The notes beneath the pieces were generated by a model. The model searched no databases. It was not told the DNA's origin and saw nothing but the letters and a program-made list of their open reading frames with translations. Below, in pieces: positions 2,766 to 21,988 of a stretch of 64,000 nucleotides of DNA (position 1 is the first letter of the stretch; every line of letters begins with the position of its first letter). Made by a program: the position numbers and the translations under genes. The DNA is taken from the NCBI GenBank assembly GCA_964030785.1, contig OZ034968.1, positions 48,693,230 through 48,757,229 on the forward strand. The letters run 5' to 3'. The DNA comes from Siderastrea siderea. Taxonomy: Eukaryota > Cnidaria > Anthozoa > Scleractinia > Rhizangiidae.

Positions 2766-3952
2766 ATTGTGTTATGTAATATTAATTTGTTACGTGGAAG
2801 TTGTCATTAAAATGTGCATCAAATGTGCATTAACTAAGAATAATTATACCAGTCTGATGCACGGCATGTGCATCAATCACTCTACGCTCAATGCTAGTAA
2901 CAAGCACTTGCTTTTCTTGGGCTACAGTAGTCGTGAAGTGTGTACGCAAACACATTTTTGGCTTTATGGGATAAGTTTTTGGTCTGGCGACTGACAGTTC
3001 AGTTGTCAATCAACCTCGGTAGAGTGCACATCTCCGATATCTGTCAACACGGGAGGTGGCGTTGATATTGACGTGTGAGTGAGAGTCTCAGGGGGGGTGA
3101 GGAGCACAAGTGGGGCATTTGACTTTTTAGAAGAATGTTTTTGTCAAACTCCCCCCCCCTGGGGCCCGAAAAAATGGTAAAATCAGGTCAAATTCCCCTA
3201 CCTGGAATGGCTAGGTCTCCGAATAGTAACACAATCCTATCCTGGTCTATAAGTTTCAGAAGCGGCATTGATCCTCAAAGTTGTCTAAACATTTACTGAC
3301 TGACAACAATGAAATAAAAAGCTTCATAATACCCACAACTTGCGGTACCCAATTAATTTATTATTGTAGCAAGTAGTGAAAAGAGAGGTGGTTGTTTTTT
3401 CGTTGAAAAGGAGTGATTACCTTCAGTAGCCCTTCCAGAGGTCTTGAGTAGTCTTTTTGTCGTCCTTAGCTTGTTGCCAAGATGGTCACTATGAGGAGCA
3501 AGAGAGTCGGTTCCAGTCCTCCTCAGAAAAAAATCAAACATCCCCACTCTGGGGCCCAGACTCAGTCAAATTCCTGAAGGAAAGGATGGCAAGAGAATTC
3601 AAATCCCTCAAGTAGGCCCCCCCACTCCCTCCTCGGGCTTAACATTGATAGGTGCATAAAGAACAGAGAATCCACATTCGCTAAGGTTTCCCTTCACCAA
3701 CCCACCCCCCCCCCCCCGGCCCTGTCAAAACAAGTACTTGAAGCTTGAATCTAGAGCTAGCAGGCTAAAAACTAAACTTAACTCAAAACAGGTACGAAAT
3801 TGCATTCAAAGCCTGTATGGTAATTACAAAGCAGGTGCAAGAAAAAATTATTTGCGGGTGGAACCACCAATTTACCATGTCTGTGAACAAGTCTTGAAAA
3901 AATTTGTATTGCAATTATCATTTTTCAGTCTGTTTGTAGCTCATATGTCGCC
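2766..3952. other. Intron sequence with C/G homopolymer repeats, no gene
   Basis: Contains C runs near 3151 and 3703 and repeated GGGGCCC and TCAAATTCC words near 3155-3200 and 3550-3580, consistent with decayed repeats. I could not define element ends. No coding potential recognised. Confidence 0.4.
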
Positions 3953-4150
3953 TTAAGGACGGTGCCTCCTAATTCAGAGGTATTCTTCAAAGGTTATGAC
4001 TATGGGGAAAAAGTAGATCTTATCAAGGGTTATTGGAATCCAAAAAGAAAAATGTGGGTAACCGCGCATTATTCAGATAATTCTAAAAAAGCATTAAAAT
4101 ACAAAGAATGTATGGCAATTTCTTTCCAAATTTAAGCTCAATTATCTCTG

Positions 4151-4480: not shown

Positions 4481-6900
4481 CAGTGCTGGAAATAATTTTT
4501 CTTACTTAGCAGGTCATGTGTCCTTTCAAATCTTCAGTTTGGTCGGACATATTACAAATTTGATCGGACACTAATTAGCATAATATAATTTGCATACGAA
4601 CAAGAAGAAACTTGTGTCAATCTGAATTACTAGATTTATAATGCAATTTAGAATAGGAGTTGAACACCACTCTCAAAGGCTATACTTTGTTTATCTATTC
4701 GCCACAAAATATATAATTGTATATATTTTTTACAATCATTATTGTTTAGATGATACCACTGACTTCTGATACCAAGCCTTAAATTTCTTTTCCTTTATAC
4801 CCGCGGGTACTTGAGTTCAGTTTCTCACTAGTGTTATGACTGACGTATTTTATTGAAGGCTCTTGTCAAAGTCTTTTCAAAGTAATTGTAGAAATTCGAA
4901 AAGCGAGACATTTTTCTTGTGTTGAGATATTTCGTGACACATTTTGGTATTGTGTGACATTGTTGCGTGCACCGGGCATGCGAGTAATGCATGGATTTTT
5001 GCCATATTTGGCTTATTTTCTCTCGGAATCGGCGTTACGTAGATTGTAGATGGGAGGTGCGAGACTAGCACTTGTTGACGCGAATACTGCTAAAAGCTTG
5101 ATAGATTGATAGTATGAAAGCGAATTGAAATCTCTTGCATTGGAGCTATCGGAGTGGTTAATAGATACAGTCCTGAACAGTAATTATTGAGTGTTAAAAC
5201 CAGTGTAAGGCTACATTTGAACCTCCAGAAATGGCTATTTTATCTACTATTAGCCTGACTGAAAGTCAGGGAATTCAAACCTGAGCTGGGCGAGTAGAAT
5301 TATTTTGTTTGTATATTAAACTTGTACATTGTCTTGATAGTGAGATCCATCCATCGTCGAAACGTCGTCACTTCTTTTGCGTAGCTTTTATGGTTGTTAA
5401 ATTAAAAAAATCGATTCAAATATTTATCCCTGACAGTTTTGAAAACTACATCTGTCACATTTCGACACATTGATTAAAAACGAGAGAATTGAACTCTGCA
5501 TAACATAAATGCCTCGTGCAACAATGTAACTTTTACTTCTTGCAGCTGTAATGGTCTAAGTCATTACGTAGAAAATACAATGTAGTACTTACATATATAG
5601 TAACACAGTAATAACGTACTGACGTATGAAAAACGCCGAGAAGACGACTAAAAACGTATGAACATACTGACATGTAGAGAAACGCGGAGATGACGAGACG
5701 TATATCATGTGGACAAAGTAACTTACGAAAAAGAAGGAATGCATACGAATAAATGTTGAACGACAAGACTGGTACTGTATGGGCATTCCACGTTACGGGA
5801 AACATCCGTAAAACAAGATTGAATTAATACGTTACGATCGAACTAACGTACCGAGAAGTGCCGAGAAGATAAAGCATAATACGGTAGAGGGTACGAACGA
5901 ACTAACCGGTATGGTGAAATGTTGAAAACATAAGACTAACACTGTACAAACGAACTAGCGTACCAAGAAACGTTAAAAAGATAACACTATTGAGAAACAT
6001 TGTAAAGAGAAGACTAATACTGTACGAACGAACTATCGTACCAGATAACACTAATACTGTACAATCGAACCAACGTACCAAAAAACGTTGGCGGAGAAGA
6101 TGACACTAAAAATTACAAACGAACTCACGTACCGAGACTGTACAAACGATCTAACGCACGGAGAAACGTTGAGATAAGACTAATTACTGCACAAACGAAC
6201 TACCGTACGGAGAAACATAGAGAAGACAAGACTAATACGGCACAAACCAACTAACGTACAGAGAAACGTTGAGAAGACAAGACTAATAATGTAAAAACAA
6301 AATAGCGAACGGAGAAACGTTGAGAAGAATGATAAGACTAATACAGTAACTGAACAAACGAACTAATGAAGGAGAATAACTTTGAGAATACTAATGCTGT
6401 ACAAACGAATTAACGTAGCGAGAAATGTTGAGAAGATAAGATTAATCAAGACTGTACAAATGAACTAACGACGGAGAAACGTTGACAAGGTAAGACTAAT
6501 ACTGCAAAAACGAACTAACGTGCGGAGAAACTTTGAGAAGATAAGACTAATACTGTATAAACGAACTAACGAACCAAGAACCATTGATATGACAACAGTA
6601 ATACAAGAGATGGGAACGTACTATGATATGGAGAAACGTCCAGAGAAGACTAATACCGTAAGAACGGACTAATGTACGGGGAAACGTCAAAAAGACCGTG
6701 AAGACTTATACTGTACAAACGAACTATCAGTTATCATTTCAATATGGTTTTAAAGCAAATGTAATCACTAAATAAAATTTTCAATGGAACAGACGTTTTT
6801 CGTGTTCGGACATCATGTCCGACCATATGGCAAAATTGGTCGGACAATTTCGAAATTTGGTCGGACAATGTCCGATGACCGACTGTTATTTCCAGCACTG
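4481..6900. mobile_element. Non-autonomous hAT-like DNA transposon, 2420 bp, 6-bp TSD
   Basis: Terminal inverted repeats CAGTGCTGGAAATAA (4481-4495) and TTATTTCCAGCACTG (6886-6900) are perfect. Both sides are flanked by CGGGAT (4475-4480 and 6901-6906), a 6-bp target-site duplication. Subterminal GGTCGGACA words occur at both ends (about 4540-4570 and 6820-6880). The interior has no transposase; much of it is a degenerate tandem array. The CAG start with short TIRs suggests the hAT superfamily, in which 5-6-bp duplications occur in some lineages, but IS3EU or Dada-type elements also make 6-bp duplications. A related element is at 58453-60334 and a lone end at 26296. Confidence 0.78.
5590..6726. 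repeat. Degenerate ~50-bp minisatellite inside the hAT-like element
   Basis: About twenty divergent units built around AACGAACTAACGTACCGAGA followed by AACGTTGAGAAGATAAGAC and TAATACTGTAC. Unit length drifts from roughly 37 to 80 bp. The array lies wholly between the transposon ends, so it moves with the element. Confidence 0.85.
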
Positions 6901-11668: not shown

Positions 11669-14600
11669 TTAGTTTTCCGAAACTAAAGTTGCAAACATGT
11701 CTTTGTCAAGTTTTAACAAGTAAGTTCCTCCATGTAAGCCTCCAGACATGGATAGATAAGGGCACTTTGAAATCAGTCCTTTAAGTTTTCCGCAACGTTT
11801 CAAAATTTCCTGGGCATCTGGAATCTGCTGGTACACCACTTTGCAGGCTTCTGATGCATATGCCTTTGCACCTGGTAGACTGTTCAAATAATGTCCAAAA
11901 GCAAATGCTAACTTTGCCAAATCAGGGTCAATCGCTGCACTCTTTAGAGTGGGTAATTCAGGAGGGGTAACTGTCTCTGTGTTAGATGGTGGTTCTTCAT
12001 TATTTCTGAGATCATAATCTACTTCTTCTGAAAGTTCATCTGGGACAACAATAATCTTTTCAATGTTTACTGTTTTAATCTCATCCTGAGTGAATTTGTG
12101 TCGAAGTCGCAATAGATCCTGGCGACCATGGACATGTCCAATAACAGTGTAAGGACCATCAAATCGACGAATGAACCGTGTGGCTGATCCTTTTGGTTGT
12201 GAACTTGGAGGTGGTCTTCTAACATAAACTTGCTTTCCTTCTGCAATGTTAAGTTCCCTGGATGATTTATCATAATATTCTCTTTGAGTCCTCTTCATGT
12301 CTGCTTTGATGCTGTTGAACTGTTTTTGTGCTTCACGCATACGAGACACAAGCTGCTCTGCATAGGTGCTTCTTGAGGGGCTTTCTCCAGGTAAGTCAAG
12401 AGAAATGACTTCAGGCGATGGTGCGTTGCGGCCAAATACCAAGAAGAATGGACTAAGTTGACTCGTACCAGGAATTGGAGATACATTGTGAGCATATACA
12501 GCTGGCTGCAGGAATTCTTCCCAGCGTTACTGGTGTTTCTCACAATAAATTGCTATTGCTGCATTCAGCCATCGGTGAACACGTTCTGTACTTCCATTAA
12601 GGCGTGGACGGTAACTTGTAACAATGTGTTCAATTGAGAGAAGTTTTGTTAGTTGGCGTGATACCGCATTAAGCCATTCTCCTCCTTGATCGCTTTGTAA
12701 GACTGCTGGAAATCCGTATTGCAGGAAAACATCATTAAACAAAGCTCGTGCTGCAGTAGTTGCTTGTTTGTCTGGGACCGGAATTGCCCGCAAGAAATTA
12801 GAGTAGGGACAAACAGCAGTCAGAATCCATTTGTTACCAGCTGGGGTAGAAGGCAATTGTCCAACATAGTCAATACCAATGGTGCTGAAGGGACGGTCGT
12901 ATATGCGAATTTGCATTGGTCCATGTTTGGGATCAGCTGACTTAAATTTGATACAGGCAGGGCAACGCCTGATCCAGTTCCTCACATGCTTAGTCATATT
13001 TCGCCAATAAAAGTCATAAGAAAGAGATCCATAAGTAGCTTCGCGTCCACGATGCATTCCCACAGGTGAATCATGATATACACGTAAGAGATGACGTTGA
13101 AGTTGAATGTCATTGGGAACCATAATACGATAGTGATTTGGGTCCTCCATAAATTCATCTCGATACATTAACAAACCGTCAATAACAGCTGAGCGCTTTG
13201 CCATTTGTTTAACCCATTGCAAGTGTTCCTTAGGAATGTTCTTAAATGCAGAAAGATCTTGATTTGAGCTGTGAAACTTGATTAGCAGATTTAACCAGTA
13301 ATCCTGTAGCTGTCTCTTAGCAAACTTTGATCGATTCCGGTTTAAAGATTCCAAATTTTCGAAGTCTTGAAAGTCGCAGTCTAAAGATGGACTTTGTTGA
13401 GATGTACCAACTTGAGGAGTCTTGGTCTGGTTAGTAACTGAAGTTTTGCTTTGAGTTTCCTTCGCACATTTGTTTCTCTTTGCGGCAATAGCCAGACAAA
13501 CTGGGTCGAGGCAATGAGCTTGAGGTATAAGGCATGCATTGTGTAAACAAGCCATGGTATTGTTAAATGTTCCATGAACAAGTTCAGGGGTGTGGTACGG
13601 AACATCAACTGAGGTTGCAATGATCATAAATGCGATAACACTGTTCTCTGGAGGTATAACAACATTGTCTTCAGGAATGTTCTCTTTTACAGGGTGACGG
13701 CTGAGAACATCAGGAACAACATTTCTTTCCCCTTTTCTGTGTTCGATGAAAACGTCAAACTCAGCCATGCTCATGCACCATCTTGCAACTTTTGCCTGTT
13801 GTGGTGCCATGGTAGTCAACCATTTAAGATTCGCATGATCGGTTACAACTTTCACTCTTCGGCCTAGTATGTAAGAGCGAAACTGTTCAAGTCCCCATTT
13901 CACCGCAAAGAGTTCCTGGTGCATCGTTGTCCAACGTGATTCAGCTTGTGTAAATGCTCGGGATGCAAATCTTACAGGGCGAAGTATGCCATCCTTCTCT
14001 TGAGCCAACATTGCACCACATCCTAGCTTGCTAGCATCCACATGTAATTCAAACTGAGCATTCCAATCAGGATGGAATAACATAACATCTGAGCCAGTGA
14101 TTGCTTGCTTCAAGTCTTGAAACTCTCTTGCTGTTTCTTCGGTCCACTGAAATGACACACCCTTCTTGAGAAGAGATCGCAAGGCTTGTGTTCGGGTAGA
14201 CATGCATGGAATAAAGTCTCTAAAATATCCACAAAGTCCAAGAAAACGCTTGACTGCAGAAGTGTTAGTTGGTGTGGGCATAGATAAGATTGCTTCTACT
14301 CCTTTGCTTAGTGGTGTTCGACCTTCTTGTGTGATCCGATGTCCCAGTATTTCGATTTCCTTTGCGAAGAATGTACACTTGGTAGGTTTTAGTTGCATAC
14401 CAACTTTAACCAATCTCTGAAACAACAATGAATAATGTTCAAGGGCCTCCTCGTCTGTCGTTGCCCACTGAATTATGTCATCCACATAAACAACCAGCCA
14501 CTTGTGCAAGTAATCTGCAAATACAGTGTTTAAAATCCGCTGAAAGGTGTTTGGTGCTGTTTTCAATCCGAAGGGGAGTCTGAGAAACTCATACAGTCCC

Positions 14601-17600
14601 AGGTGTGTACAAAATGCAGTTTTTTGTTGATCCGATTTCCGGATAGGAATTTGCCAGTAACCACTGACCAAGTCACATTTCGCAAATACTTTTCCTTGGC
14701 TAACAGCATCAAGAACGCTAGAGATAGAGGGGATAGGGTAACCATCCCCTTGTGTCACACTGTTGAGGCGGCGATAGTCCACCACAAATCTTGGAGGTTG
14801 CAGTTTACCCTTTTCTGGAGGTTTGCGGACCAGGATGCATGGGGAACCCCATTCTGAATGACTTGGTTGTATTATCTTGAGCTTAAGCATCCGCTCGATT
14901 TCTGTTTTGATTGCTCTGAGTTCCTCTGGGCTTTTCTTGTACGGGTGACGATAGATGGGAGGGGCATCAGCTGTGTCAATTCTGTGCTCAAACCCCTTTA
15001 CTGCTCCAAGTGGACTACCAGGGAGGACAAATGCAGTAGGATACTGACGGATAAGTTCCTTAAATCTCTTCATGATATCTTCATCAACATTAAAATACTC
15101 TGGGCCATCTAAATCCAAGGCATGAAATATAGCATCACTGTAAGCAGATGAGTAAGGGTCACAGGTTAGCTCCTCTGCTGGAGGAAACTCAGGACCTTGA
15201 CAGTCAAATTCTGGTAGCGCATCACAGAAAGGAGACAATATGGATGAGTTGAGACCAGAATCTTCCATTTCTTTCACTTGGACTGAAAGTTGCCATTGCT
15301 TTGGAGCACAAAAGTCTAAGTCACAATGTTTATGTTCAGTGTCCTTTGGAGTTTGCAATGAAGGAGGTGGCTGCTGAGTATTTGCCCAAGTAAGCCATCC
15401 ATCTGCAAGTTGTTTTGCAGTAGTGTCAGCTGCTTCTTCAAGAACAGCATCATCATCCTTTGTCATGTCTCTAACATTTCCTAGAATGACATTCTCAGGG
15501 ATACTTGTCTTCTTCAACTTAGATTCCACTGCCAGTGTTGTGCAGTATGTGATGTGCATGTCAGGAGTTTCTTCTGTTAGAACTGATTCTGGTGTTTCAG
15601 CAAGGTCTATGAGCTGAGCATTGTAGCATGGATCACTGCTAGGGCGTGCTGTTTCAGGTGTCACATTACTTGAAATTTGGCTGAGATCAAAGGGACCACT
15701 GAGAACCTTGACGCCTGGTTGAATGTCTTTACCCTCAATCCAAAGTGGTTGACGGATTACTTGGTATCCCATTAAAGCTGCAGAAAGGGTGACACAGACT
15801 GTAACAAAATTAAGGCCACGGTGAAGGGATTGTGAATGCTTGTTAACACCCAGTGGCGGTGCTCCGGTAAGAAGGCATGTAATACTAACATGAGGCTTCT
15901 GCGCTGTTGATCCACTTTCACATGATGAGGAGCTATTGTGTACAGAGATGTTTGCGAAGCCTTGAAGTGGATTGTCAAGAGAGCACTGGACCCGAAACTG
16001 CATACTCGGATGGCGAAAGGTGATGGACGGAGCATAATGATCAACCAATGCTTGAGTCGCATGAAGGTGGTTCTCTCCAAAGAGCATTGGCCATACGAGA
16101 CCTGGAACTACGAGCATAGTAAAGACAGTTTCTGTTTGGTTTTCCCATGTGATGGGGATTTGCATAGTGGCAACTGCTTTAAGATCAGACTTTGAATCGG
16201 CAGAGGTAACAGAAATGGGTTCTTCAAGGGCACAATACTTGAGGTCAGGTCGATTGGATGCAACACAATCAGCATGTACTTTGCTCACAAGGGATACAGA
16301 ACAGCAACTATCCAATGGCAAGGGCAGTGGTTCACCTGCAGATGTAACAGAGGTCCACAAGATATTACGCTGACATAACTGAGTTTCTGGCTTTCCTGAA
16401 TGTGCTGGGATGGTAACGGCAGGTAATCCAAATAATGGAGTAGATGTCGATGGCTGATCAAATGAAGCTGGAGGTGGTGGTCGTGAAGCGGAGGGTGATG
16501 TTTGGTTTTCAGACCCTGCAGGAATGGAAGTCGAGGATTTCTCCGTACACTGAGCTTCGTATTTTTCCAGACGAGTAGATAAGACTACGAGTTGCTGTCT
16601 AAGAGAATTTACCTCATCAGATGGAACAGTGCTGCGAGATGTGCTTGATGGGCGATTTTCCGAGTGTTTGATAGCTTTACAGCCCCACTTGTTACAGCGT
16701 TGGCACTTGTGTTGTCGGCCATAAGAGCATTTGTTGCCGTCTTCCTCGCAATTAGATTTGGGAAATCGATTGTAATTTCTGCATATCTCCGGTTGTTTTG
16801 GAGTGTCTTTGCGGTATTTTGGACAGTACCTTGACAGATGAGTAGTTTCTCCGCAAGTGTAACAAGCCCTCTGCTGTCGTTGGGAGTGCTGATATTGAGA
16901 CTTCACCGAGGTCGAGGAAACAAACGCATTCGGTGGTGTAACTTTCCATTCATCGAGCGACTGATTTGGTTTCGAGGCGGTGGGCGAAGTTTGAAATGAC
17001 AACTCAACACGACGAGCCGCTTCGACTGCCTTATCGAGTGTTTCAAATTCTGATGCTTTCACAACGAGCTGCTGAGCAATACTAGGCTTGACTTTAGAAA
17101 TAAACTGGGATATAACAAAGGTAGGACAATCCTTCGCAATCTTTTCGCCAAGTTTCTCCAATTGATGCAGTAGTTTCTTGTATTTGAACGCAAACTGTTC
17201 CACTGACTCGCCATGCTCTTGTTGAATGGCGCTTAACTCGGCTGCTAATCGGCGGCACTTGTCTTCTTTCGATTCACCGAATTCTGCACGTAATCGTTCG
17301 ATGCAAATGTTAAGTTGGTCTTCTACCGCTTTATCTGCGTAGCCCTCTGTGGTTTTAGCTATTGACAACACAGATCTCGGCCAGTCGCCAACACACTGTT
17401 GTTCAAGAAGGGAGAAACGTGTTCCGGCGGGAAGATGTGAGGTTTGTTGATTGAACCGCTCGAGAAATTCCGAGATATCGTCTTGTACCACACTATCTCG
17501 ACGAAACGAAGGAAGCTGGATGGAAGGCATACGAAGACCTTGTGTATTTTCGTGTTGAACTGGTGCTGGAACGGCCTCGGCCATGTTGCCGACTGTTTGG

Positions 17601-17689
17601 TTTACTTGAGTTACATTTGTTGTTAAGTCTTTCACAACGCTGACAAGTCCAGCCACGATGCCTTGCAATTCTTCAATCGTAGCTGGCAT
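11669..17689 (-). pseudogene. Gag-Pol polyprotein gene with one in-frame stop in integrase
   Basis: One continuous frame runs from ATG at 17689 to 11669, broken only by a TAA at 12529-12527. Order: Gag helical region; a CCHC knuckle CYTCGETTHLSRYC near residue 277; a second Cys/His cluster (305-336); an aspartic protease site LPLDSCCSVSLV near 458, with DSC where DSG or DTG is usual; RT with YVDDI near 1068; RNase H at LHVDASKLGCGAM near 1215; the integrase H2C2 zinc region near 1535-1580; and catalytic D, D and E at IDYVG, SDQGG and STERVH (about 1610, 1668, 1702). The stop falls just after the catalytic Glu; about 286 more codons follow in the same frame, including an RFDGPYTVIG GPY/F motif. 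Gag and Pol are fused without a frameshift. This copy probably cannot make full-length integrase unless the stop is read through. Confidence 0.9.
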
Positions 17690-17724
17690 GATGAGTCCGA
17701 CGAAATTTTGGGTTCTCCACCACT

Positions 17725-17917
17725 TGTAGACGGATTTGCGGGGGAATAAAGAGTGACCACAGCGGAATGAACTAACACAACTTTATAACTGTAAACTGTA
17801 AACAAGGTAAACGCTGACAAGACTGACAATGCTCGATCCCCCAACTTCGATTCCCTCGACTCTCGCTCCATGTGCTCTTGTGTCACGTGACTATTTGAAT
17901 CCCATAATTCCACTACA
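17725..17917 (-). repeat. 5' LTR of the Gypsy element (right on the plus strand)
   Basis: Matches 11341-11533 throughout. On the coding strand it is the upstream LTR and would hold the promoter for the gene ending at 11669. Confidence 0.93.
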
Positions 17918-17921
17918 ACAC

Positions 17922-18166
17922 TGGGGGGGGGGGTACTCCGTATTGTGTGCTATATAGGGAGGTTCTGCCCGAAAGGGGCGCCTTTTGTGCTTGCAGTATA
18001 CAAAAGGGTAAGGAAATTTACCGTTTTAGTGTGTTAAAGGGTACACCGAACACAGTTTAAACTGAAAGAGATAGGACCAAGTCTCAGTACCAAACATCTT
18101 GACATAAATCACATAATGCAAAATGTACGAAAGCTTGCAGCCTTCGAGAGACTAATTCCCGCAATA
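17922..18166. repeat. Left half of a palindromic G-rich repeat split by the DD34E transposon
   Basis: Opens with a G run then GTACTCCGTATTGTGTGCTA and AGGGAGGTTCTGCCC, matching the reverse complement of the end of the intact repeat at 23560-24006. The remainder continues at 21989-22087, which ends with GGGCGGAGCCTCC and a C run. The DD34E element therefore landed in a pre-existing copy of this repeat, and the Gypsy element sits immediately to its left. Confidence 0.7.
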
Positions 18167-18196
18167 GAGCGATTTTCGTCGGACCATGAAACAGTT
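18167..18196 (+). repeat. Left terminal inverted repeat of the DD34E transposon
   Basis: GAGCGATTTTCGTCGGACCA followed by TGAAACAGTT, preceded by TA at 18165-18166. Partner at 21957-21986. Confidence 0.9.
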
Positions 18197-18423
18197 TCTA
18201 GTAGTTAGTGAATAATAGTATCTATTAAAGTGTATTAGTCTAGTCTAATCTTTAGATCAGACTACAGTCTATCAATAGGTCTAATGACTAGGTCTATTCC
18301 TTACAACAAACCCTTTTGTCTAAAAACTCACAAGTTTATTGTAATTCAGAACTGTTCAGAATTACGTTAATAAAATAATCACTGGTCCAGCTTGCTTGAG
18401 TTCATTGCTTTCGACACTTTATT

Positions 18424-19437
18424 CTACAGAAGCACTCTCCAAGATCGTTGGTGAAAGTGTCTTACGTTTAAAGGGCTGATTTGTTCAAATGCAATCACAA
18501 TTGCCAACATGGTATTTTCTTTCAAGAAACCAGGGGTGAAACGAGCAATTGCTTTTGCTTGTCCAAAGACCATTTCGATGGGATTTAAATCATAACTATA
18601 GCCTGGCAGTTTAACAAGAGTAATGTTCTTTCTAGCTAAAATTCTGCATAATACGATTTCATTATGTACACTTGCATTATCAGCCACCAAATAACTGTTC
18701 GCGGGCAAGAGTGGCAGCACTTGGTTCTCTATTACATCAGTTATTAGATCTGCTGTGAAATTTCCTTCAACTGGAATTGCCTGCAAGACTCCCTCGTTAA
18801 ATCCACAAACGCCTAGAGTGGAAAACTTTCCAGCTCGTGCTCTGCTTTTCTGACGAAGGACCGGACCTGCAAATCCTGAGTCTGTCCTTCCATATTCACG
18901 CTCATCAGTCTCGCAATTAAAGTGTGTCTCGTCGAAAAAATAAACTTTAGCTGGGTCAACAGTCCTTCGCCATTGAAAGAAAAGTTGACGACAATGGAGA
19001 TTGTAGGGTGTCATCCTTTCCTGAGCCACGTGAATGCATTTCTTTCGAGTGATGCGGAGCCTTATGAACAGTTTCGCTATTGATGCCATAGATGGAACAT
19101 CGCCGGGAGCCATATGGAAATCGCTCGCAAGTATCTGTTGCAGCTCACGAAGGTAGAGAGTGGGGTACATTCTGACAAGAGCTTCAAGATATGCTGCCTT
19201 CCACCATGTCATTTGTCTTGGACGCACATTATTGCATACCGAAGGTATCAATGTTGCCCTTTGTTGAAATAATCGCACATATTGGTCTACACAATTGTAG
19301 GAAACCCGACAAATTCTTGACGTGTTAGCTATGGAAAACGTTTCCAAAAACGTCACAATGATCTGAAGTATTTTTTGTGTCGGGTAAGAACTTCCAAAAC
19401 GGCAGCAACCGTGGTTCTGGTTTATACGCCACGACAT
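18424..19437 (-). CDS. DDE transposase, IS630/Tc1-mariner superfamily (DD34E)
   Basis: An uninterrupted 337-residue frame. The N-terminal half has two helix-turn-helix-like segments expected of a bipartite paired-like DNA-binding region: about 18-60 (TQKILQIIVTFLETFSIANT) and about 77-135. The catalytic half shows VYFFDETHFN with D169, SYLVADNASVHNE with D253, and SYDLNPIEMVFGQAK with E288. The second D and E are separated by exactly 34 residues, giving DD34E. The length is normal for the superfamily. ATG at 19437 is the first Met of the frame and faces the DM gene across 237 bp. All catalytic residues are present, so it may be active. It would bind the 30-bp TIRs and cut and paste the element. 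Confidence 0.9.
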   Translation of the reverse strand: MSWRINQNHGCCRFGSSYPTQKILQIIVTFLETFSIANTSRICRVSYNCVDQYVRLFQQRATLIPSVCNNVRPRQMTWWKAAYLEALVRMYPTLYLRELQQILASDFHMAPGDVPSMASIAKLFIRLRITRKKCIHVAQERMTPYNLHCRQLFFQWRRTVDPAKVYFFDETHFNCETDEREYGRTDSGFAGPVLRQKSRARAGKFSTLGVCGFNEGVLQAIPVEGNFTADLITDVIENQVLPLLPANSYLVADNASVHNEIVLCRILARKNITLVKLPGYSYDLNPIEMVFGQAKAIARFTPGFLKENTMLAIVIAFEQISPLNVRHFHQRSWRVLL

Positions 19438-19674
19438 TCTAAAAATTAAATGTCATGTTTTGAATCATATAAAAACAAATACTCGAATGTATTTGTGAAT
19501 GTATAGAGCAAACAATGGAGGGAGCTAGAGGCAATTAAAAAAGACAATGAAACTTGTGTTGCACGTGCAACATATCGTAGATGCAAATAAAATTTATTGT
19601 GAAGATTACACGTTGGGGATTTTGAACAGTTTGTATTCAGTCGCACCGTGTGTACCACACATATTTGCTTTAGT
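19438..19674. promoter_or_regulatory. Shared divergent promoter between transposase and DM-domain gene
   Basis: The 237 bp between the two start codons must hold both promoters. It is AT-rich, with CATATAAAAACAAA near 19467 as a possible TATA-like element for the minus strand and CAAATAAAATTTATTG near 19584 for the plus strand. A 16-bp perfect palindrome lies at 19557-19572, and ACAATG, the core of DM-domain binding sites, occurs near 19511 and 19544. Use of these sites is inference. Confidence 0.6.
19557..19572. promoter_or_regulatory. 16-bp perfect palindrome with DM-like half-sites and an E-box
   Basis: TGTTGCACGTGCAACA reads the same on both strands. Its outer hexamers TGTTGC and GCAACA are the half-sites of Doublesex/DMRT consensus sites, but arranged facing outward; the centre is CACGTG, an E-box. 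It lies mid-way between the divergent genes. It could be an autoregulatory operator for the DM protein, or simply an E-box. Confidence 0.45.
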
Positions 19675-21720
19675 ATGTCGGGGAGGACATGTGGTAAATG
19701 CCGCTTACACGGCCAAGTCGAGCTGCTAAAAGGACATAAAAGAAATTGTCCTTATGCAAACTGTTCCTGCCCTAAATGTGCAAGTCACGAGCACCTCCTC
19801 GCACTTCGAATGACAGATCGTCATTCGAATGAGGACAAGGGAAAACGCTGGCGCACTAACCTGACGCATTCCTGCACAGCAAAGAAAGCAGAAGACCACC
19901 AAGCTGTACGGTTTCCAGAAATGACCGCTCAACTGGATAGTGAACCTATGTTTGCTCTGAAGGTGGCAAATTTTGAAGCAGCAAAGAAGGCAATGGAGAA
20001 AAGCAAGCCAAAGTCAGAGCAAAGGAAAGGTAAACATGTTTACAACGACTAACTATCCCGACTTAAAATTAAGGCGTTGAGTATTTCAAGGGGAATTTTG
20101 ATCTTCTAGAGGACCTCGTCACTATTTTACTCCGGTACCGATACAAATTCAAGCTTTGTAACGGAGGGGTACATTGGGGTTTGCGGGATTACGGTTCTGA
20201 GCGATTTTTCTTACGGTTTTACGGTATTTTCGATTCACAACTGCGGGATTGCGGTTTCATCCAGTACGACGGTACGCGTTATTTTAGCATTTTGAGCAGG
20301 TGTGTTCGGTAAAATGTCTAATTTTGTACGGTATTCCGGTGAGGGAACTTTCCTTACAATGTTAGTAAGAGAAGGAATTTTGCGCAAGTTTCAGTGCGGT
20401 TTTCGGTAACCTGCGATCAGGCGAATTATTTCGCGCTCTCATTTACTCTCTGTCTTTTTGTGGTCGCGCGAAAAATCCCGTAAGAGAATGTAAGGAACGT
20501 GAAAATTTGGCCTGATCGCAGGTTAGGTTTTCGGTATTTGAGAGGATATCTTGCGGTTTTACGGCACGGTTTGGAGACCCCCAGTGTTCCCTCAGTAAAA
20601 GAAATGAGTAAACGGGATGTAAATAGGCTATAGCCCAGCCTATTTTTATTTGCATACTTGTCTGTGTTCAAAATAGTTTTAATATTGTCTGTGTAAGATT
20701 AGACCTATTTCCCTAGTATAAAATTGAAAAATATTGTAATTTAATTACAATTTCAGCTAAACAACAGGAGCAGCTTGAGAAACACCGGCACCTATACAAC
20801 AGCATTAATTCGTAATCACAAGAAATCACCACCACAGTGAAAGACGTCAACCCAGTGACCGTGTTAAAAACGGCAATTCAGTTGCACCAAAGACAGCCCA
20901 GACGAGAGAGACACCTCGGCGCGTCAAGCACTGCGACAGTCACTACTTTCTCCCCAACGGCTCCAGCACATCCGTCCCCTTCGCCAGCAGCACTTTACTC
21001 AGAAGTTGGAAAACTTGAAAAAGGTCTTGCCATTCGCAAATGAGGTAAAATTAGCCTCCCTTCTTGCTCGAGCACAAGGGGATATGGATGCAGTCGTTCA
21101 AGAAATCTTGGACTCGTCTAACGATCCGAAAGTTGAGCACACTCACGATGCAGCAGGTGAAGCGGAGAATCTAAGAATCATCGACCTTACAGGCCCGGAC
21201 GATGACGAGAAATGCTTCACCGAAACCACCACGGCAAAGTCCGCAGAAAGAATCGGGTCTTTCTGCAGGTACCGGAGCACATTGTCCTTCTTTTGTTTGT
21301 GAGACAATGTGTTTTGGTTCTATTCTGGAGTTGAATTGTTTTCTGCCTTTTGTTTCTTTTGTTTTACATCATTCGTTCTCCGGTACTCACAGAAGGAACC
21401 AAAGAATCAAGCAACTGGCCAGCATGCCAGTTGAAACAGCAGCATTGAGAGATATTATCAAGACCGTCGAAGAAAACGATGCAGCGAAAGCTAATTTTAA
21501 TTTATATTCTTTTCATAAGCCAGAGAAAAGTGCAACAAATGTAAATGTTTTCAAAAGTATGGAAGAGAATAGATATTCGCAACAACTCTCGACCATGCAA
21601 CATGTAAACCCGCGTGGGTGCCCTTACTGCTTTAAAAGTATTTCCACTGACCAACAAGGCAGTTTTTGTAACTTCTGTGGAGGAATTTTCCCAAAAAATT
21701 ACAGAGGTGGTAAAAATTAA
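19675..21720 (+). CDS. DM-domain (DMRT-like) protein encoded within the DD34E transposon, four exons
   Basis: Model: exons 19675-20029, 20757-20811, 20882-21268 and 21393-21720, each junction GT/AG; the sum is 1125 nt, 374 codons plus TAA. Residues 6-35 form a DM domain: C6, C9, H12, H21, C25, C30, C32 and C35 have exactly the spacing of the Doublesex zinc module, with CGKCRLHG and LKGHKRNC recognisable. A basic and Lys-rich linker follows. Residues about 181-215 (VLPFANEVKLASLL, then GDMDAVVQEIL) resemble the DMA/CUE-like helical motif found C-terminal to DM domains in some DMRT proteins. An acidic stretch (near 240) and a zinc ribbon CPYC-x12-CNFC (342-361) end the protein. Family knowledge: DM proteins bind the minor groove as dimers and act as transcription factors. 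Here it may bind the transposon itself or host genes. The second intron is only 70 bp with a weak pyrimidine tract and is the least certain junction. Confidence 0.78.
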
Positions 21721-21956
21721 TGTCGCAACAAGTATCATATACATGTGCATTTCCGCTGTCGTAACATGACTCGAGAATCAGTAATAAAGGAAAAATAAAC
21801 CACACGTTCACTGTATATTTGTGCTTGTCCATTTTGTGTTGTTTTTCTTGTTTTTTGATTTAGACTAATCTCCTTTAGGGAATAGAAGCTAACAGACCTC
21901 AGCCGTCCCTTGACTAGCAGCAACTAATTTGGCGTAACAGTATATCCTTGCACAGT
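21721..21956. other. 3' flank of the DM gene inside the transposon
   Basis: Non-coding. AATAAA at 21783-21788 and again within AAAAATAAACC (21792 on) lie 60-80 bp after the stop and are good poly(A) signals. Confidence 0.6.
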
Positions 21957-21986
21957 AACTGTTTCACGGTCCGAGGAAAATCGCTC
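21957..21986 (-). repeat. Right terminal inverted repeat of the DD34E transposon
   Basis: Inverted copy of 18167-18196 with two mismatches, followed by TA at 21987-21988. Confidence 0.9.
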
Positions 21987-21988
21987 TA

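What the first reader, a model, noticed from the sequence alone, without database searches (positions are those of the whole stretch)
18167..21986. A Tc1/mariner-IS630 transposon carrying a DM-domain (DMRT-like) gene as cargo
Seen: 30-bp TIRs with TA duplications enclose exactly two divergent genes, an uninterrupted DD34E transposase and a DM-domain gene. DM domains are known from animal sex-determination and developmental transcription factors; I do not recall one as the second gene of a mariner-type element. Inference: the DM protein may be an accessory DNA-binding subunit (compare two-gene Harbinger or En/Spm systems), a regulator of the transposase, or a captured host DMRT gene being spread. 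It also raises the possibility that some host DM genes came from transposons.
Basis: partly seen in the sequence, partly recalled or inferred. Interest (0 to 1): 0.96.

Follow-up and report, generated by a model that had tools for sequence, protein, structure and literature searches.

The report
Jumping gene carrying a DM gene
A jumping DNA element in this genome (likely a coral or sea-anemone relative) carries, beside the gene for its predicted cut-and-paste enzyme, a gene of the DM family that animals use in sex determination; the pair is repeated in dozens of copies, and the DM protein likely helps or controls the jumping.

Summary
Window 18165-21988 is a 3.8-kb DNA transposon with 35-bp, 91% inverted ends and TA duplications. 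It holds a 337-aa DD34E (IS630/Tc1-mariner-type) transposase and, head to head with it, a DM-domain gene. The pair is mobile: 17 of 20 further family loci fetched are full length, one with a clean single-TA empty site. Of 74 DM matches in the genome, 60 sit head to head with a related transposase (median gap 250 bp); 11 are ordinary DMRT-like genes. Degraded relatives keep the same pair between their own diverged ends, so the partnership is old. In intact copies the DM protein is a predicted two-exon, 390-aa DM + CUE-like + zinc-ribbon protein. A host DMRT has the same order of parts, so capture from the host is likely. An Exaiptasia protein annotated "DMRT A1" is of the transposon type. In the window copy the DM gene is dead (stop codon and 146-bp insert). 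What the DM protein does is inferred: most likely it binds subterminal repeats or the shared promoter and assists or regulates the transposase, as the Myb-like protein of Harbinger does. Ten text searches gave no report of a DM gene in a transposon.

The parts
18165..21988 (.). Whole element with its TA duplication (18165-18166 and 21987-21988)
   Evidence: inverted repeats; same ends in 17 further full-length copies; TA at both ends in 16 of 18 copies
18165..18199 (+). Left terminal inverted repeat
21954..21988 (-). Right terminal inverted repeat
18238..18322 (.). Left subterminal cluster of six GTCTA motifs (one TAGAC at 21861 on the right); candidate protein-binding sites, inferred
   Evidence: 7 in 392 subterminal bp against 1.26 expected, 0 of 1000 shuffles as high; motif chosen after inspection
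18424..19437 (-). Transposase gene, 337 aa plus stop, DD34E, paired-box-like N-terminus
   Evidence: DDE_3 1.7e-17; IS630 3.9e-20, 72.5 bits under a cut-off of 100; catalytic spacing
19438..19674 (.). 237-bp intergenic stretch between the two start codons, presumed two-way promoter; holds a 16-bp palindrome at 19557-19572
   Evidence: promoter role inferred
19675..20029 (+). DM gene, predicted exon 1 (DM domain)
   Evidence: DM 2.9e-12; donor site present in 18 of 18 copies; junction matched by P0076
20030..20756 (+). Predicted phase-1 intron, 727 bp
20757..21722 (+). DM gene, predicted exon 2 (CUE-like from about 21009; C-terminal zinc ribbon about 21610-21700); broken in this copy by a stop at 20813 and by the insert at 21255-21400
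21255..21400 (.). 146-bp insert with 8-bp duplication AAAGAATC (hAT-like short element, inferred), absent from the other copies aligned

Best explanation
It is a two-gene DNA transposon of the Tc1/mariner-IS630 type, in which a DD34E transposase gene and a predicted two-exon DM-domain gene sit head to head between TA-flanked inverted ends, and whose DM protein likely works as the element's own DNA-binding helper or regulator of the transposase. Shown: the pair moves as a unit and is kept together in diverged families. Inferred: the DM gene was captured from a host DMRT gene of the DM + DMA/CUE + zinc-ribbon type. Inferred: its protein binds short repeats near the ends and/or the shared promoter, brings the transposase to the ends or sets its expression, and its level is tied to ubiquitin through the CUE-like part. 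The nearest working model is PIF/Harbinger, where a second, Myb-like protein binds a subterminal 9-bp motif and is needed for transposition.
For: Mobility: 17 of 20 further family loci fetched are full length, TA at both ends in 16 of 18 copies and an empty site with one TA; 60 of 74 DM matches paired, median gap 250 bp; 66 of 68 transposase clusters at 60% identity or more carry exon 1 or exon 2. Old partnership: L030, L035 and L036 keep both genes inside diverged TIRs. DM protein: DM, CUE at 4e-4 in relative L036, conserved C-terminal ribbon; a host DMRT with DM, DMA and ribbon and NvDMRT F with DMA and zf-ribbon-3 (PMC4433094, passages). Mechanism: subterminal GTCTA cluster in families A and B; Harbinger precedent (PMC9710019, passages); ubiquitin binding by DMA domains (PMC7538159, passages).
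Against: No binding, expression or transposition data. The DM gene is broken in the window copy, and both genes are full length in only 4 of 18 copies. Within the family, private changes look neutral (ratio 1.04 and 0.87) and shared ones are too few to show selection (transposase 0 silent, 7 replacing; DM 5 and 3). The GTCTA motif was picked after looking at family A and is not enriched in family C (2 found, 214 of 1000 shuffles as high). Pfam finds no CUE or DMA in the family A protein itself or in P0002; DM matches stop at position 36 of 47, so DNA recognition has changed. L030 has lost zinc ligands. Structure models were unusable.
Confidence: 0.6

Rival explanations
1. The DM protein acts mainly on expression and on the host rather than in the transposition complex: as a DMRT mimic it would switch on the two-way promoter in germ-line or gonad cells, compete with host DMRT proteins, or repress the transposase when copies are many.
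For: Head-to-head genes share 237 bp, with a 16-bp palindrome in it; DMRT proteins regulate sexual development (PMC4433094, passages); a ubiquitin-linked domain fits dose control (PMC7538159, passages).
Against: The DNA-reading helix of the DM domain is not conserved (match ends at 36 of 47), so host DMRT targets need not be bound; no expression data; the palindrome was not found in the three relatives scanned.
Confidence: 0.2
2. The DM gene is passive cargo: a captured host gene that is merely carried and has no role for the element.
For: Copies show neutral private changes, and many DM readings are broken.
Against: The same gene pair, gene order and reading frames are kept in families whose transposase HSPs are only about 45-74% identical; 66 of 68 clusters at 60% or more retain DM-gene sequence; relatives of both exons exist in other public sequence sets. 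Passive cargo should be lost over such a time.
Confidence: 0.15
3. The direction is reversed: DM + CUE + zinc-ribbon genes of cnidarian hosts (DMRT F type) descend from the transposon.
For: P0076, annotated as a DMRT of Exaiptasia, is of the transposon type.
Against: The transposon DM domains form one long-branched clade (100/100) apart from host DMs, and the host gene L005 has a full DMA (4e-16), which the transposon protein has lost or changed. Whether P0076 is a host gene or an element copy was not tested.
Confidence: 0.04
4. Chance neighbourhood of a host DM gene and a transposase gene.
For: The window alone shows a single locus.
Against: 60 of 74 DM matches paired, 18 full-length copies with the same ends, empty site.
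Confidence: 0.01

Closest known systems
Tc1/mariner (IS630-Tc1-mariner) DNA transposons
   Same: TA duplication, about 30-bp TIRs, DDE transposase with DD34E spacing
   Different: Typical Tc1 and mariner elements are about 1.2-1.3 kb with a single ORF (PMC7325037, passages); this one is about 3.7 kb with a second, DM-domain gene
TBE elements of ciliates (Tc1/mariner group)
   Same: DD34E transposase plus further ORFs, one a zinc-finger protein (PMC7325037, passages)
   Different: No DM domain is mentioned there; hosts are ciliates. The proteins were not compared here
PIF/Harbinger two-gene transposons
   Same: Transposase plus a separate DNA-binding protein gene; subterminal motif bound by the second protein (PMC9710019, passages)
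   Different: Transposase of another family, Myb/MADF instead of DM; 3-bp instead of TA duplication (passages)
DMRT proteins, NvDMRT F type (DM + DMA + zinc ribbon)
   Same: Order of three parts; zinc ligands of the DM domain
   Different: Carried by a transposon; DNA-reading helix and DMA changed
dm-W of Xenopus
   Same: A DM gene joined to DNA-transposon sequence (PMC9250109, title and start of abstract in listings)
   Different: There a host gene took up non-coding transposon DNA; here a transposon carries a DM gene

Membership tests
Tc1/mariner (IS630-Tc1-mariner) superfamily | TA target-site duplication | tested here: met
   TA at both ends in 16 of 18 copies; single TA at the empty site
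Tc1/mariner (IS630-Tc1-mariner) superfamily | Terminal inverted repeats | tested here: met
   35 nt, 91%; same TIRs in 17 further copies
Tc1/mariner (IS630-Tc1-mariner) superfamily | DDE transposase of the IS630/Tc1 kind with a DD34E triad | tested here: met
   DDE_3 1.7e-17, above cut-off; D169, D253, E288; the bacterial IS630 equivalog model is matched at 72.5 bits, under its cut-off of 100
Tc1/mariner (IS630-Tc1-mariner) superfamily | Place in a named family (Tc1, mariner, Gambol and so on) | not tested
   No reference transposases of the named families were at hand for a tree
Tc1/mariner (IS630-Tc1-mariner) superfamily | Single ORF (typical, not defining; TBE and Tec have more) | tested here: not met
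   Two genes in 60 DM-transposase pairs; PMC7325037 passages
DMRT (DM-domain) proteins | DM zinc module | tested here: met
   43.7 bits against a cut-off of 27 in L016; eight ligands
DMRT (DM-domain) proteins | Conserved DNA-reading helix after the zinc module | tested here: not met
   Profile match ends at 36 of 47
DMRTA-type (DMA) proteins | DMA motif PF03474 | tested here: inconclusive
   No DMA match in the transposon proteins scanned; the related CUE model matches L036 at 4e-4, 20.4 bits against 21.1
PIF/Harbinger two-gene elements | PIF/Harbinger transposase with Myb-like/MADF partner | tested here: not met
   The transposase matches DDE_3/IS630 and the partner matches DM
PIF/Harbinger two-gene elements | Second protein binds subterminal sites and is needed for transposition (works like) | not testable with these tools
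   Only a candidate motif cluster was seen

The most novel reading that the evidence does not exclude
A mariner-type transposon turned an animal DMRT gene into an obligatory second subunit of its transposition machinery, and this happened or was rearranged at least twice: head to head in families A-D and tail to tail in family E, whose inverted ends also mark some two thousand short elements. Part of the DMRT gene counts of corals and anemones would then be transposon genes.
Probability: 0.3. Interest if true: 0.95.

Novelty: new variant of a known kind. Interest (0 to 1): 0.85.

Why it matters
DM-domain genes are known as conserved regulators of sex and neurons in animals; in this genome 60 of 74 DM matches belong to a transposon. 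That changes how DMRT family expansions in cnidarians should be read. It gives a second protein to a Tc1/mariner-type element, a group whose typical member has one gene, and offers a testable case of a developmental transcription factor made into a transposition factor.

Tried and rejected
Chance association: rejected by the copies. Host synteny of the DM gene: rejected; the printed flanks of the 17 full-length copies differ from one another. L029/L037 as ordinary host genes: my first reading (note), dropped when perfect 25-bp TIRs were found round the C12 locus, and later at the homologous right end of the C1:13.16-Mb copy and near the C1:58.69-Mb copy.

Structure predictions of exon-2 relatives and of exon 1 were too poor to use (mean pLDDT 44 and 51); no fold search was made. 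Scans of prokaryote contigs with the transposase alignment, and of viral contigs with both alignments, found no relative. The selection test within the family had too few shared changes. The search for more copies of the family E transposase did not complete. A scan for DMA (PF03474) over the genome did not complete and was not repeated.
Full report
What is in the window. Inverted arms at 18165-18199 and 21954-21988 (35 nt, 91%) begin and end with TA. Between them, on the minus strand, lies an uninterrupted 337-aa transposase (19437-18427): DDE_3 1.7e-17, paired-box-like N-terminus 8.3e-6, IS630 profile 72.5 bits against a cut-off of 100, D169, D253 and E288 with 34 residues between the last two. 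Head to head with it, 237 bp away, is a DM-domain gene on the plus strand from ATG 19675, DM E=2.9e-12. One correction: in this copy the DM gene is dead. The predicted spliced reading ends after 137 codons (stop at 20813), and a 146-bp insert with an 8-bp duplication sits at 21255-21400.

The element moves as a unit. The window lies in an 830.9-Mb assembly of 402 contigs. Twenty more loci of this family were fetched; 17 are full length between the same TIRs with different flanks, 3 are incomplete in the stretch held. TA stands at both ends in 16 of 18 copies, window included; the insertion site of copy L011 exists empty, with one TA, in L014 (99.3% over 302 bp) and in L021 (91.6%). The 18 copies are 99.1-99.5% identical to the majority base, which looks like a young burst. 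Both genes are full length in 4 of 18 copies (L015, L016, L018, L026; L016 has two extra residues in the D-E spacing, L018 is five residues short); the DM reading reaches its normal end in 10 of 18 (nine of 390 aa, one of 387); the others are broken or cut.

How many. Of 74 DM matches in the genome, 60 lie head to head with a transposase match, median gap 250 bp; the 14 others are 11 high-scoring DMRT-like genes (57-88 bits), L034, and L029/L037. The transposase search gave 127 matches, a lower bound because 119 of 368 candidates were scored. They fall into 87 clusters, of which 60 pair with a DM match and 9 more with exon 2 of the DM gene. By best identity, 66 of 68 clusters at 60% or more, 3 of 10 at 40-60% and 0 of 9 below 40% carry the head-to-head gene. 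The 18 unpaired clusters are seven copies of a 28-29% relative, two at 36%, one at 40% (C12:3388445), six on C6 at 9.27-10.06 Mb, C12:8470530 and C8:48640390; some of these belong to family E below. The TIR pattern has 110 + 121 matches against 7 + 6 for the reversed control.

An old partnership. Degraded elements L030, L035 and L036 carry transposase pieces and DM-gene pieces inside TIRs of their own (TAGAGTGATTTCACTTAACCCGTGAAAC and similar; 3.8, 3.6 and 4.2 kb). Against the intact L015 proteins, the main transposase alignments run at about 45-74% identity and the DM-gene exon alignments at about 35-63%. L034 keeps a DM domain (52%) and a transposase remnant (48% over 54 residues). In a transposase tree the window, L035 and L036 rows fall in one clade of nine rows, 100/100, apart from L039 (20 of 57 rows of the search and three own-genome rows, two of them pieced together). 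Public protein sets hold 56 relatives of the transposase, 10 of exon 2 and 13 of exon 1. Three bear an organism's name, all sea anemones (P0065 Actinostola, P0066 and P0076 Exaiptasia; the first two match the transposase over 22-23% of its length only). [quoted passage not shown] The host of the window is named by no tool; a hexacoral is my inference.

What the DM protein is. In intact copies: DM domain, then a CUE-like stretch, then a C-terminal CxxC...CxxC ribbon. CUE is found at 4e-4 in relative L036, just under Pfam's cut-off (20.4 against 21.1 bits), and weakly in P0008 (0.009); in the family A protein and in P0002 Pfam finds none, so there it rests on the alignment. Host gene L005 has a DM exon and an exon with DMA (4e-16) followed by a zinc ribbon (4.5e-4, under its cut-off), and NvDMRT F is reported with DMA and zf-ribbon-3 (PMC4433094, passages). 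The same order of three parts points to capture of such a host gene; this is inference. The DM tree puts the five transposon DMs in one clade (100/100) on a long branch apart from the 12 rows that I had labelled host (one of them, L029, turned out later to be transposon-borne); 11 of 16 inner branches are open, and it does not show which host gene was the source. DM matches stop at profile position 36 of 47, so the DNA-reading helix has changed.

How it probably works. GTCTA/TAGAC occurs 7-8 times in 392 subterminal bp in three family A copies and in both family B copies, against means of 0.9-1.4 in shuffles and 0 of 1000 as high; family C has 2 (214 of 1000 as high). The motif was picked after looking at family A, and A and B share descent. 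In Harbinger3_DR the second, Myb-like protein binds a 9-bp subterminal motif and interacts with the transposase, and both proteins are required (PMC9710019, passages). By analogy the DM protein is likely the element's end-binding helper or regulator; the CUE-like part may tie its level to ubiquitin, as reported for DMA domains (PMC7538159, passages). None of this was tested. Private changes in copies look neutral and shared ones are too few to show selection; the case for a function is the long joint retention.

A second arrangement. At C12:3388053-3396953 perfect 25-bp TIRs (TAGAGCAGTTTTCAATTGAGTGTCG) enclose an intact sister-clade transposase (42%) and a DM + CUE-like + zinc-ribbon gene, tail to tail. 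The second exon of that DM gene gives six matches at five loci, two of them (C1:58.69 and 59.12 Mb) alike. A perfect TIR lies at the homologous right end of the C1:13.16-Mb copy and 885 bp from exon 2 at C1:58.69 Mb, where one search lists no DM exon. This TIR has 2147 + 2157 matches against 0 + 0 for the control (only the first 100 places are listed), most of them probably short non-autonomous elements. Transposase matches at 36% (C1:58706867 and 59136506) lie about 10.6 kb from those two DM-gene copies, again convergent. More copies of this transposase could not be searched.

Novelty. Typical Tc1 and mariner elements have one ORF; TBE elements of ciliates carry three, one a zinc-finger protein (PMC7325037, passages). 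Ten text searches (listings, in an open-licence library that lacks most subscription journals) gave no report of a DM domain in a transposon. I file it as a new variant of a known kind.

Noticed in passing
L039/L037, C12:3388053-3396953; also C1:13.16 Mb (L029), C1:58.69 and 59.12 Mb, C5:17.748 Mb: Family E: perfect 25-bp TIRs round an intact sister-clade transposase and a DM + CUE-like + zinc-ribbon gene arranged tail to tail, 8.9 kb; the DM gene's second exon is found at five loci.
   Followed up: partly
whole genome: The 25-bp TIR of family E has 2147 forward and 2157 reverse matches (up to 3 mismatches) against none for the control: a large population of probably short non-autonomous elements.
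   Followed up: partly
[quoted passage not shown] its locus was not seen.
   Followed up: partly
window 21255-21400: 146-bp insert with an 8-bp duplication (AAAGAATC) and imperfect inverted ends inside exon 2 of the DM gene, a hAT-like short element by its duplication; no other match in the loci held.
   Followed up: partly
window 12527-17782, minus strand: Open frame of 1751 aa that looks by eye like a retrotransposon gag-pol, next to the element; only listed.
   Followed up: no
C6:9.27-10.06 Mb: Six transposase matches (40-51%) within 0.8 Mb and no DM gene beside them: tandem spread or a domesticated gene.
   Followed up: no
C3:21334628, C6:48638064, C12:39315265, C13:23736937, C14:5268786, C14:30137744, C10:19859488: Seven nearly equal transposase matches at 28-29% identity with open frames of 345-346 aa and no DM gene: another family, apparently young.
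   Followed up: no
L034, minus strand, reverse-complement coordinates 3755-4129: A THAP-like open frame (named by eye) between the DM gene and the transposase remnant of a degraded copy, perhaps a nested element.
   Followed up: no
window 19557-19572: Perfect 16-bp palindrome TGTTGCACGTGCAACA between the two start codons; not found in the three relatives scanned.
   Followed up: partly
L029 about 1011-1310 and C12 region L039/L037 about 5257-5487: A short nested element of about 230 bp with TIR-like ends, shared by both copies of the family E DM gene.
   Followed up: no
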